Assembly (NCBI RefSeq): GCF_028583425.1
Contig: NC_072793.1
Span: forward strand, 104,269,689 to 104,333,688
From: Eublepharis macularius
Lineage: Eukaryota; Chordata; Lepidosauria; Squamata; Eublepharidae
Reading direction: 5' to 3'
DNA: 64,000 bases
Positions within the stretch are counted from its first letter, which is position 1; the number at the start of each line of letters is the position of its first letter. Shown in pieces: positions 28,301-31,300 of this stretch. The position numbers and the translations under genes are program-made. The notes beneath the pieces were generated by a model. It ran no database searches, had not been told where the DNA came from, and worked only from the letters and a program-made list of their open reading frames with translations.

Positions 28301-31300
28301 GCTGATATCAGGGAAACAGGGAGTCATGTTCTCTCTATTTCTTGGATTCTACTCAAATTCTGCAAAATATGATGGATGCCTGAAGCTAAATTTCAGAAAT
28401 ACAGAATTAATCCCAAATGACACAGAGTAGGAGAATTAGCTCATCTCTAACATAATCAAGCTCATAATCACAGCACAGAGAACAACAGCCTATATATCTC
28501 TTCATTATTTTTCAATATTTTACACAGCAACATACCTCTTTCAGGGACAGGTTCCACAGCAGAGTTGGGATTTGAACTTGGGTCTCTCACATCCTAGCTT
28601 GACAGTCTAACAATTATAACATTCTCATTATTATCATTCTCATTCAGACTTGGGTGTCATCAATATGCAGATGACACCCAGTTGTATCTGACAATGGCTG
28701 GCGTGACTCAGCCCCAGATGTCCTGGAACATGTTTTTGCAGCTGTGACTGGTTGGTTGAAGTAGAGTCAGCTGAAACTGAACCCGATGAAGACAGAGGTC
28801 CTGTACTTGAGCCACGGGGGATTAGGTTCGGGACTCCGGCTCCTGGCCCTCAATGGGGCACCATTAGTGCCAGTTTCGAGGATTAAGAGCCTGGGGGTGA
28901 TCCTGGGTACCTCCCTGAAAATGGAGGCACGGGTCACAGCGGTTGTCAGGTCCTCATTTTTTCCATCTGTGGCAGACCAGGCAACTTGTCCCTTGCCTGT
29001 CAACCCGTGACTTAACTACAGTGATCCAGGCAACGGTCATCTCTAGGCTAGATTACTGTAACTCGCTCTATGCAGGGCTGCCCTTGAGCCTGACCCAGAG
29101 ATTACAGCTGTATAACATGCAGCGGTGCACAAGAGTGCCAAATAAGGCGCATATAACACGATATTATGTGAGCTGCATTTGTTGCCAGTGGAGTACCAGA
29201 TCAGATTCAAGGTTCTGGTATTGACCTATAAGGCCCTGTGCGGACTGGGGCCAGCGTATCTACAGGACTGTCTCTCCCCATATATTTCCTGGAGGACTCT
29301 CCGATCAGGGGACAAACAGCTGTTGGTGGGCCCTGGCCCCAAGGAGGTCCGCCTAACCTTGACTAGAGCCAGAGCCTTTTCAGTCCTGGCTCCCACCTGG
29401 TGGACCGCTCTATCTGCTGAGATCAGGGCCCAGCGGAACCTACTATCCTTCCACCGGGCCTGCAAGACAGAGTTCTGCCAGGCACATGGCTGAGGCTGGG
29501 CCTCTGTCAGCCTGAAAAAAGGGGTGTATAATTTTTTAACCCTCCCTGTGAAGGCTGTCCACCATCCTGTTTTTAAATTTGTATTAATAGAAATATGCTG
29601 CTGTTTTAATGTTGATGAAATTTTTATTGTGTTTTAATAGGTTATCCACCCTGAGCCTGCTCGCGGGGAGGGCGGAATAGAAATTTGAAATAAAAATAAT
29701 TAAATTAGGCATTAAATCAATTAACCAAGCAAGTACAAAAGCTATATATAACCAAATAGCATCCAAGATCTGGTTTCAATGGATATTTAAAGACAATTAC
29801 TACCAGTTCAGTAACATACAAATTATCAGCAAGAAGCTATGTAACTAAAAGTTCTGCAGAACAGATTGGTACAGTAGCCAAAAGAGGGGCAAAACCTCTT
29901 TCTTTATCTCCTTTAAGGTAGCGACTCCACATGGGCTATTACAGTGTCCACAAGAACAGAAAGGATCAAAGGAATTTTCTCTTGAGGGAATTTTCCCTCA
30001 AGAATTGTTGATGGCCAAAGCAACTTATTCTTGCAACTTCTCTAAGTGCCTAAGAGAGACCCAATTTACTTTGAGACAGAACTAGTACATCATCAGCATA
30101 TAAAAGACTACTAATTTAGTATTAGCTAATATTGGAGAATTGCTAATTCGACTATTTAAAATTCAACAGGACATTGCCAAAGTAACATTCATCAAGAGGT
30201 TCAGTACTATTTACCTGCCAGACCTTGACAAGGAGCTGTCACAACAGAGAATCTCCCGTGTGGTATTATGTCTTCACAATTGTTTTAATAAAGGATATAT
30301 TAATTGAGTACTGTTTCACAAATTTGTTTATACAGAGTAAGGGATGTAATAAACAATTTGTATATTCTTTTGTTTCTCTTGACACAACCATATACTACAC
30401 CATATATTGCAACCTCCCTAGACCTCAATTATACAGGCATCTTATGCGTTCTAAAAACAATTCATTAAAGTGTCCCGTGCTCAAAGTGCTATCATAGATG
30501 TTATTAAAGTGCAATTGCTTTTGGCATCTTATGACACTATTTCTCATATAGAACTCGATTTGCCTTGCATACAGGTACAATACAGGTACAGTATAAGGGT
30601 AATTCCAGACACTGTGAATGTCACAGATCAAAAGGACCTATAATCATAGGTTCACGTAGTTGGTTCTGTGACTGCATTCTCTAACGGACGGTCCAGATCC
30701 TTGTAAGGTCCGTTTCCAAGCTTCTTTCTCAAAGAGCACAGATGTCAAAGATTCATCATAGTTAACCTTCCATATCCCTCTTTGATTTGTCAATTACTTC
30801 CATGGCATTCACAGTGTCTGGAATTACCCTTATACTGTACCTGTATTGTACCTGTATGCAAGGCAAATCGAGTTCTATATGAGAAATAGTGTCATAAGAT
30901 GCCAAAAGCAATTGCACTTTAATAACATCTATGATAGCACTTTGAGCACGGGACACTTTAATGAATTGTTTTTAGAACGCATAAGATGCCTGTATAATTG
31001 AGGTCTAGGGAGGTTGCAATATATGGTGTAGTATATGGTTGTGTCAAGAGAAACAAAAGAATATACAAATTGTTTATTACATCCCTTACTCTGTATAAAC
31101 AAATTTGTGAAACAGTACTCAATTAATATATCCTTTATTAAAACAATTGTGAAGACATAATACCACACGGGAGATTCTCTGTTGTGACAATTACATTACC
31201 GTGTTGCTCTATTTTCTTGACAAGGAGCTGGCATTTTTCATTCTCTATAGGTAATTGTCCCTTAGCATACTTATCACAACACTTGTATCCACAAAAAGGC

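What the first reader, a model, noticed from the sequence alone, without database searches (positions are those of the whole stretch)
30224..31230. 384-bp identical inverted repeat carried by a 977-bp insertion with a 15-bp target duplication
Two arms of equal length (30237-30620, 30806-31189) show no mismatch when read against each other, across a 185-bp spacer. A 15-bp direct repeat, CTTGACAAGGAGCTG, sits immediately outside. Cut-and-paste elements in this window leave 3-8 bp duplications, so a 15-bp one suggests target-primed reverse transcription. Yet LINE twin-priming gives an inversion without duplicating sequence. A snap-back or template-switch event making a double-stranded copy, as Penelope-like elements tend to do, would explain it. 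The transcribed intron would carry a nearly 400-bp perfect RNA hairpin, a potential substrate for ADAR editing, Dicer or circular RNA formation of the MUSTN1 pre-mRNA. Identity also implies a recent event or gene conversion between arms.
Basis: partly seen in the sequence, partly recalled or inferred. Interest (0 to 1): 0.78.

Follow-up and report, generated by a model that had tools for sequence, protein, structure and literature searches.

The report
Double-primed Penelope retrotransposon hairpin insertion
The perfect inverted repeat is a young jumping element of the Penelope type that was probably copied from its RNA twice, once from each cut DNA strand, and sister copies in the same genome record how that happens.

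Summary
In detail: two perfect 384-bp arms, a 977-bp insert, an exact 15-bp target duplication. The arm is the 3' end of a young Penelope-like retrotransposon; its tail-arm junction occurs 99 times in this genome. Of 99, 68 had a placed duplication: 62 head-to-head dimers, 4 monomers, 2 set aside; 31 stayed unresolved, 15 of them one-ended without a duplication. In 62 of 62 dimers only one end carries the ~34-nt tail. Against snap-back: the tail-less half is longer in 31, shorter in 24, equal in 7. The template was sense RNA: an 80-nt GT-AG intron is missing in 60 halves, exactly in 59, the window's included. Halves agree in splicing (18 of 18) and nearly always in source variants. The target is a palindrome, TGCC-N14-GGCA. 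Best reading: symmetric cut, both 3' ends prime at neighbouring sites of RNA from one source, cDNAs end-joined. Known: inverted pLTRs, tails, two start sites in vitro. Not met in my paper searches: a palindromic target, double priming as cause of the inverted ends.

The parts
30224..30238 (.). left copy of the 15-bp target-site duplication
   Evidence: exact duplications of 13-17 bp flank 61 of 62 resolved dimers, 11 bp the other
30237..30803 (-). tail-less half of the dimer: Penelope-like 3' region (pLTR), antisense on +, family positions U1-508 + U589-647, that is, to the presumed 5' end of a spliced sense RNA; its first 2 bases overlap the left duplication
30744..30745 (-). splice junction where an 80-nt GT-AG intron (present in other copies) is exactly missing
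30804..30805 (.). 2-nt filler at the join of the two cDNAs
30806..31189 (+). tail half of the dimer: family positions U384-U1, sense on +
31190..31215 (+). tail extension (26 of about 34 nt), the stretch between the two inferred reverse-transcription start sites
31216..31230 (.). right copy of the 15-bp target-site duplication
31230..31233 (+). GGCA target half-site beside the duplicated stretch; the partner TGCC (30216-30219) is 4 bp further out here than the family's usual 14 bp

Best explanation
The insert is a non-coding product of a Penelope-like retrotransposon. Inferred: a symmetric GIY-YIG endonuclease dimer cuts both strands of a TGCC-N14-GGCA-like target, leaving 14-nt 3' overhangs that become the duplication. 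Supported by copy structure: each 3' end primes its own reverse transcription of a sense element RNA, one starting at the outer site (keeping the tail), the other about 34 nt further in (tail-less). Shown by copy structure: in this insertion the template was a spliced RNA; one cDNA reached U647, near the sharp end shared by the spliced copies (presumed 5' end of the RNA), the other stopped at U384. Inferred from junctions: host end joining then sealed the two cDNAs head to head, giving a perfect inverted repeat with unequal halves. That both cDNAs come from one RNA molecule, rather than two sister transcripts of one source, is a further inference (about 0.5).
For: Family and enzyme: RVT_1, E=1.4e-07; GIY-YIG, E=3.7e-06, C-terminal piece. 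Dimers: 62 of the 68 of 99 sites with a placed duplication, tail at exactly one end in 62 of 62. Independent half lengths: tail-less longer 31, tail longer 24, equal 7. Sense spliced template: intron GTGAGTAT...TTTTCCAG; 60 spliced halves in 49 of 99 sites, junction exact in 59; 57 of 60 end at U629-655; 34 unspliced halves in 26 sites; no site mixes the two. Counting only copies that reach past the intron, insertions with and without it occur in each of four main haplotypes (13 and 9, 3 and 9, 4 and 6, 6 and 22), so this is repeated splicing and not one deletion lineage. Same source: splice state discordant in 0 of 18 (shuffled mean 9.0, minimum 2 in 20,000); source variants discordant 0/34, 1/33, 0/24, 0/23 and 1/44 against shuffled means 15.6, 15.6, 12.0, 11.5 and 8.1. 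Symmetric cut: with TGCC aligned alone, GGCA matches at least 3 of 4 exactly 14 bp on in 47 of 66 sites (mean 3.3, maximum 11, in 1000 letter shuffles). Joins: 28 of 62 overlap by 1-9 nt, 4 are blunt, others have fillers, some locally templated. In vitro precedent: an anole Penelope-like protein cleaves and extends both target strands from two adjacent internal RNA sites that bound the tail (PMC11167929, main-text section read).
Against: All evidence is from one assembly: no reads, no transcripts, no relatives. The 99 sites were chosen by an exact tail-arm match, so young tailed copies are over-represented. Of the 31 unresolved sites, 13 show an inverted segment but no placed duplication, 3 run to the end of the DNA held, and 15 show only the tail half, ending inside the held DNA with no duplication and no short tail-less piece within 200 nt (in one of these the reference itself ends): such one-ended copies and the 4 monomers are not predicted by obligate double priming. 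Two dimers break source concordance at common variants (C4_742591, C3_13779454), which allows two RNA templates at times. Two centres (C15_8360260, C6_129909927) are near-perfect small palindromes, as self-priming would also give. The window's own target matches the motif on one side only. The published anole element prefers AT-rich ATT sites (PMC11167929). Why long copies keep the intron is not explained.
Confidence: 0.8

Rival explanations
1. Snap-back: the first cDNA (with tail) folds back and copies itself, giving the inverted half; later trimming at the centre makes the halves unequal.
For: Halves are nearly identical and concordant; two centres are near-perfect small palindromes (C15_8360260, C6_129909927).
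Against: The self-copy cannot be longer than its template, yet the tail-less half is longer in 31 of 62, the window included. It does not explain a stop near U1, about 34 nt before the target, in 62 of 62, nor the palindromic target.
Confidence: 0.08
2. Self-priming on an antisense RNA template, as favoured for rotifer Penelope elements (PMC3846280, discussion read).
For: Would give head-to-head repeats and explain intron retention in the long copies.
Against: 60 halves lack the intron, 59 exactly at its GT-AG borders; an antisense transcript would not be spliced there.
Confidence: 0.04
3. Two separate insertions: a second copy landed in or beside the first in opposite orientation.
For: Two units are present.
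Against: One outer duplication per dimer, the same head-to-head form in 62 of 68 sites with a placed duplication, concordant splice state and variants. Inner duplications were not searched for as such, but 60 of 62 centres leave no more than 23 nt of filler.
Confidence: 0.02
4. Assembly fold-back artefact.
For: Perfect arms are a classic artefact sign (recalled).
Against: Unequal halves, a tail on one side, flanking duplications and 62 similar dimers at different places with different centres.
Confidence: 0.01
5. A DNA transposon or fold-back element with long terminal inverted repeats.
For: Inverted arms, TG...CA-like ends, target duplication.
Against: Centres vary freely, an intron is lost, truncation varies, and the family encodes a reverse transcriptase and a GIY-YIG endonuclease.
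Confidence: 0.01

Closest known systems
Poseidon/Penelope-like element of the green anole, PAc (PMC11167929; abstract and main-text section read)
   Same: Reverse transcriptase plus GIY-YIG protein; cleaves and extends both strands; two adjacent internal start sites that define the tail.
   Different: AT-rich ATT target, hammerhead ribozyme, tandem copies described; here a TGCC-N14-GGCA target, no ribozyme found, inverted dimers in most resolved sites. No sequence of PAc was compared.
Penelope families of the rotifer Adineta vaga (PMC3846280; passages and discussion read)
   Same: Inverted pLTRs, mostly head to head; an optional 31-bp tail on one of them; 8-10 bp duplications; microhomology.
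   Different: There explained by self-priming, on an antisense template or perhaps an unspliced sense one; here the template of many copies was spliced sense RNA and the halves are independent in length.
Penelope of Drosophila virilis (only as described in PMC11167929)
   Same: Optional tail of 30-40 bp, GIY-YIG endonuclease.
   Different: No sequence of it was compared here.
LINE-1 twin priming (recalled)
   Same: The second target strand's 3' end also primes on the RNA.
   Different: Gives an inversion without duplicated sequence and uses no fixed second start site.

Membership tests
Penelope-like elements with endonuclease | Reverse transcriptase domain | tested here: met
   L014:922-2547, Pfam RVT_1 E=1.4e-07, above cut-off; the telomerase-like branch was not tested by a tree
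Penelope-like elements with endonuclease | GIY-YIG endonuclease C-terminal to the reverse transcriptase | tested here: met
   L014:2047-2547, GIY-YIG E=3.7e-06, above cut-off; not reported when the whole 542-aa piece was scanned; 40% identity over 285 aa to another GIY-YIG frame of the window
Penelope-like elements with endonuclease | Inverted pLTRs with a 30-40 nt tail on one end | tested here: met
   62 of 62 resolved dimers have the tail at one end only; direct tandem pLTRs were not looked for
Penelope-like elements with endonuclease | Target-site duplication (8-10 bp in the rotifer passages; up to about 15 recalled) | tested here: met
   13-17 bp in 61 of 62 dimers, 11 bp in one
Penelope-like elements with endonuclease | Hammerhead ribozyme motif in the pLTR (common; recalled as not universal) | tested here: not met
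   No Rfam match in window 30200-31260 at E<=10; no hammerhead in L014, L028, L023, L112 at E<=1; no CTGANGA in tail plus U1-760 of one copy; a divergent form could be missed
Penelope-like elements with endonuclease | AT-rich target preference (anole and D. virilis, per PMC11167929) | tested here: not met
   Motif TGCC-N14-GGCA instead, 66 sites
LINE-1-type insertion with twin priming | poly(A) tail, inversion without duplication (recalled) | tested here: not met
   No poly(A) at either end; 384 bp present in both orientations

The most novel reading that the evidence does not exclude
Penelope-like elements integrate by double priming on one RNA molecule. A symmetric dimer cuts a palindromic site, and its two reverse transcriptases take two start boxes about 34 nt apart on the same RNA (sense CTGTTGTGACA and TTGTTGTACA). 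So a completed insertion has one tailed and one tail-less end, and the standard product is a head-to-head dimer joined by the host, not a monomer made by second-strand synthesis.
Probability: 0.42. Interest if true: 0.8.

Novelty: new variant of a known kind. Interest (0 to 1): 0.62.

Why it matters
How Penelope-like elements (a third class of retroelements, in the anole paper's wording) build their inverted ends and why they carry an optional tail is open: PMC3846280 says further experiments are needed to decide between an antisense and an unspliced sense template, and PMC11167929 leaves the later steps unvalidated. This genome gives a natural data set that separates the models: spliced sense template, two independently extended cDNAs from one source, symmetric target, end-joined centre. 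It also means that this element seeds inverted repeats in inserts of 0.1-5 kb, this one beside MUSTN1, which could form long double-stranded RNA if transcribed.

Tried and rejected
The spacer peptide gave only sub-threshold Pfam matches to Rap1_C (E 0.065-0.16) and nothing credible among solved structures (one match, E 9.8). That idea, a snapped-back TERF2IP retrocopy, was dropped once the family was found; so was the idea of an endogenised copy-back viral RNA, for which no search was made. LINE-1 and DNA-transposon readings were rejected (see rivals). A hammerhead was looked for and not found. The microRNA models that hit L014 are below their cut-offs and lie on the palindrome centre; treated as artefacts. 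Of the 40 arms scored, five have no exact tail site within 6 kb: three were fetched, C10:94192840 has a tail with a mismatch but no second arm or duplication seen, and C5:73169789, 12.2 kb from a tail site at C5:73182336, was not resolved. My first count of intron state by haplotype wrongly listed halves too short to tell as lacking the intron; one search replaces it. Paper searches listed no report of a palindromic Penelope target or of double priming as the source of inverted pLTRs; I judged from listings except for four papers: PMC11167929 (outline, abstract, main-text section), PMC3846280 (passages, discussion), PMC12910113 and PMC8969392 (passages). The library is open-licence only, and the survey PMC8557442 was not held.

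Full report
Two arms of 384 bp, perfect reverse complements, lie at 30237-30620 and 30806-31189, and a 15-bp duplication frames a 977-bp insert. The insert is not symmetric. On the right, 26 extra bases stand between arm and duplication; on the left the arm starts at once. That asymmetry turned out to be the key.

The arm is a repeat family. In the window's own genome (2.24 Gb) it gave 404 first-look candidates; 40 were scored, all printed as 100% identical, and several lie in inverted pairs at varying distance. Longer copies carry open pieces with a reverse transcriptase (RVT_1) and a GIY-YIG endonuclease (C-terminal piece; it was not reported when the whole piece was scanned). The arm is therefore the 3' end (pLTR) of a Penelope-like retrotransposon, and the 26 bases are part of a tail of about 34 nt seen at one end of other copies.

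I held DNA for each of the 99 exact matches to the tail-arm junction (loci; parsing). For 68 a target duplication was placed: 62 head-to-head dimers, 4 monomers, 2 set aside (one of these, C3_95981226, is a dimer by eye but is not counted). The other 31 stayed unresolved: 13 show an inverted segment but no placed duplication, 3 are tail halves that run to the end of the DNA held, and 15 are tail halves that end inside it with no duplication found and no short tail-less piece within 200 nt (in one of the 15 the reference ends). So perhaps one in seven of these copies is one-ended, which plain double priming does not predict. Distances between duplication copies in the dimers run from 100 to 5221 bp, median 980. 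Exact duplications are 13-17 bp in 61 and 11 bp in one. In 62 of 62 one end has the tail and the other starts near position U1 (range U-6 to U39, mode U1 with 18). Of the 40 arms, five have no exact tail site within 6 kb. Three of the five were fetched: one is a tail-less monomer, one has by eye a tail half of about 10 nt, one has a short tail half. No dimer with two tailed or two tail-less ends was met, but two of the five arms remain unresolved and tail-less dimers would escape the tail pattern.

Snap-back does not fit. A self-copy cannot be longer than its template, and only the tail half could be the template. Yet the tail-less half is longer by more than 10 nt in 31 dimers, the tail half in 24, neither in 7 (two-sided binomial p=0.42 for 31 against 24). 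The window copy is one of the 31: its tail-less half reaches U647, its tail half U384.

The template was spliced sense RNA. Positions U509-588, present in long copies, read in sense GTGAGTAT...CTAAT...TTTTCCAG, a canonical intron. Sixty halves in 49 sites lack it, 59 of them exactly; 57 of the 60 end at U629-655, as if a transcript began there; 34 halves in 26 sites keep it, with ends from U610 to U2640; no site mixes the two. Among copies that reach past the intron, insertions with and without it occur in each of four main sequence haplotypes (13 and 9, 3 and 9, 4 and 6, 6 and 22), so it is not one deletion that spread. This speaks against an antisense template, the reading favoured for rotifer Penelope elements (PMC3846280, discussion read), at least for the spliced class.

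Both halves come from one source. Where both are informative, the splice state agrees in 18 of 18 (20,000 shuffles: mean 9.0 discordant, minimum 2). At the variants U142, 260, 293, 398 and 416 the halves disagree in 1/44, 0/34, 1/33, 0/24 and 0/23 dimers, against shuffled means of 8.1, 15.6, 15.6, 12.0 and 11.5. Halves of one dimer differ at 44 of 18,331 sites (0.24%; 41 of the 62 dimers had at least 200 shared sites); halves of different dimers differ at 0.81% on average. At 15 shared-variant positions there were 525 concordant and 10 discordant comparisons; some of the 10 lie at CpG sites or at the centre. C4_742591 differs at two shared variants and could come from two templates.

The target is a palindrome. 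Among 66 sites with a placed duplication (62 dimers, 4 monomers), aligning only on TGCC at the left (at least 3 of 4 letters in 61; shuffles mean 12.9, maximum 23), GGCA matches in at least 3 of 4 letters at distance 14 in 47, against a mean of 3.3 and a maximum of 11 in 1000 letter shuffles. At the other distances tried, 8 to 21, the counts are 0 to 8. The window's own site has GGCA beside the duplication but its TGCC stands 4 bp too far out. Several targets look like one repeat (inspection). A duplication of the 14 bp between the half-sites, with cDNA joined directly to the cut ends, implies cuts that leave 14-nt 3' overhangs, that is, two equivalent primers (inference).

The centres look end-joined: 28 of 62 overlap by 1-9 nt (some of the shortest overlaps will be chance), 4 are blunt, the rest carry fillers, several of which copy nearby sequence. 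Outliers are one overlap of 73 and inserts of 75 and 308 nt, the last because the reference ends there. Two centres with the same 7-nt overlap (C15_8360260, C6_129909927) are near-perfect small palindromes, which self-priming would also give.

Published work supports the enzymology: an anole Penelope-like protein cleaves and extends both strands in vitro and starts at two adjacent internal sites that correspond to the tail's ends; its authors leave the later steps open and saw no difference in start site between strands (PMC11167929, main-text section read). My data add the outcome in a genome: one start site at each end in every resolved dimer. In sense the two inferred start boxes read CTGTTGTGACA and TTGTTGTACA. 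A simple reading is that two reverse transcriptases sit side by side on one RNA; two sister RNAs from one source remain possible.

Limits: one assembly, no relatives, no reads; sites chosen by an exact tail match; further pattern counts could not be run. Age: at a recalled rate of 1-2e-9 per site per year, 0.12% per copy suggests about one million years; this is rough. Nineteen large contigs of gradually falling size suggest a gecko; recalled, not tested.

Noticed in passing
window 1749-2621 (+): Open frame of 290 aa with a GIY-YIG domain (E=1.5e-06), 40% identical over 285 aa to the present family: a second Penelope-like family in the window.
   Followed up: partly
window 27848-27735 and 25384-25280 (-): Two MUSTN1 coding exons; the start-codon exon was not found, so the insert may lie in intron 1 or upstream of the gene.
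   Followed up: partly
family positions U509-588 (e.g. L009, L010): 34 halves keep the intron, nearly all running past U655 (ends U610-2640), while 57 of 60 halves without it end at U629-655; why splicing follows the nearby start is unexplained.
   Followed up: partly
15 one-ended sites, e.g. C12_41920190, C11_61376047, C9_104991340: Tail half only, often ending at U639-651, without a duplication of the tail-side flank: perhaps singly primed insertions joined to another break or with a target deletion.
   Followed up: no
sites C3_550394, C6_1607066, C6_115467491, C8_108761439, C5_146405697: Several insertions hit what looks like the same older repeat (GTTGCCAGCCTCCAGGTGG...), a possible hot spot because it carries the palindromic target.
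   Followed up: no
C1_241840337 (L035): A copy whose centre holds tandem copies of U352-440 (88-bp spacing), perhaps repeated template slippage.
   Followed up: no
window 8570-9223: Arrays with a 116-bp period; an inverted repeat of 61 bp at 80% lies in them.
   Followed up: no
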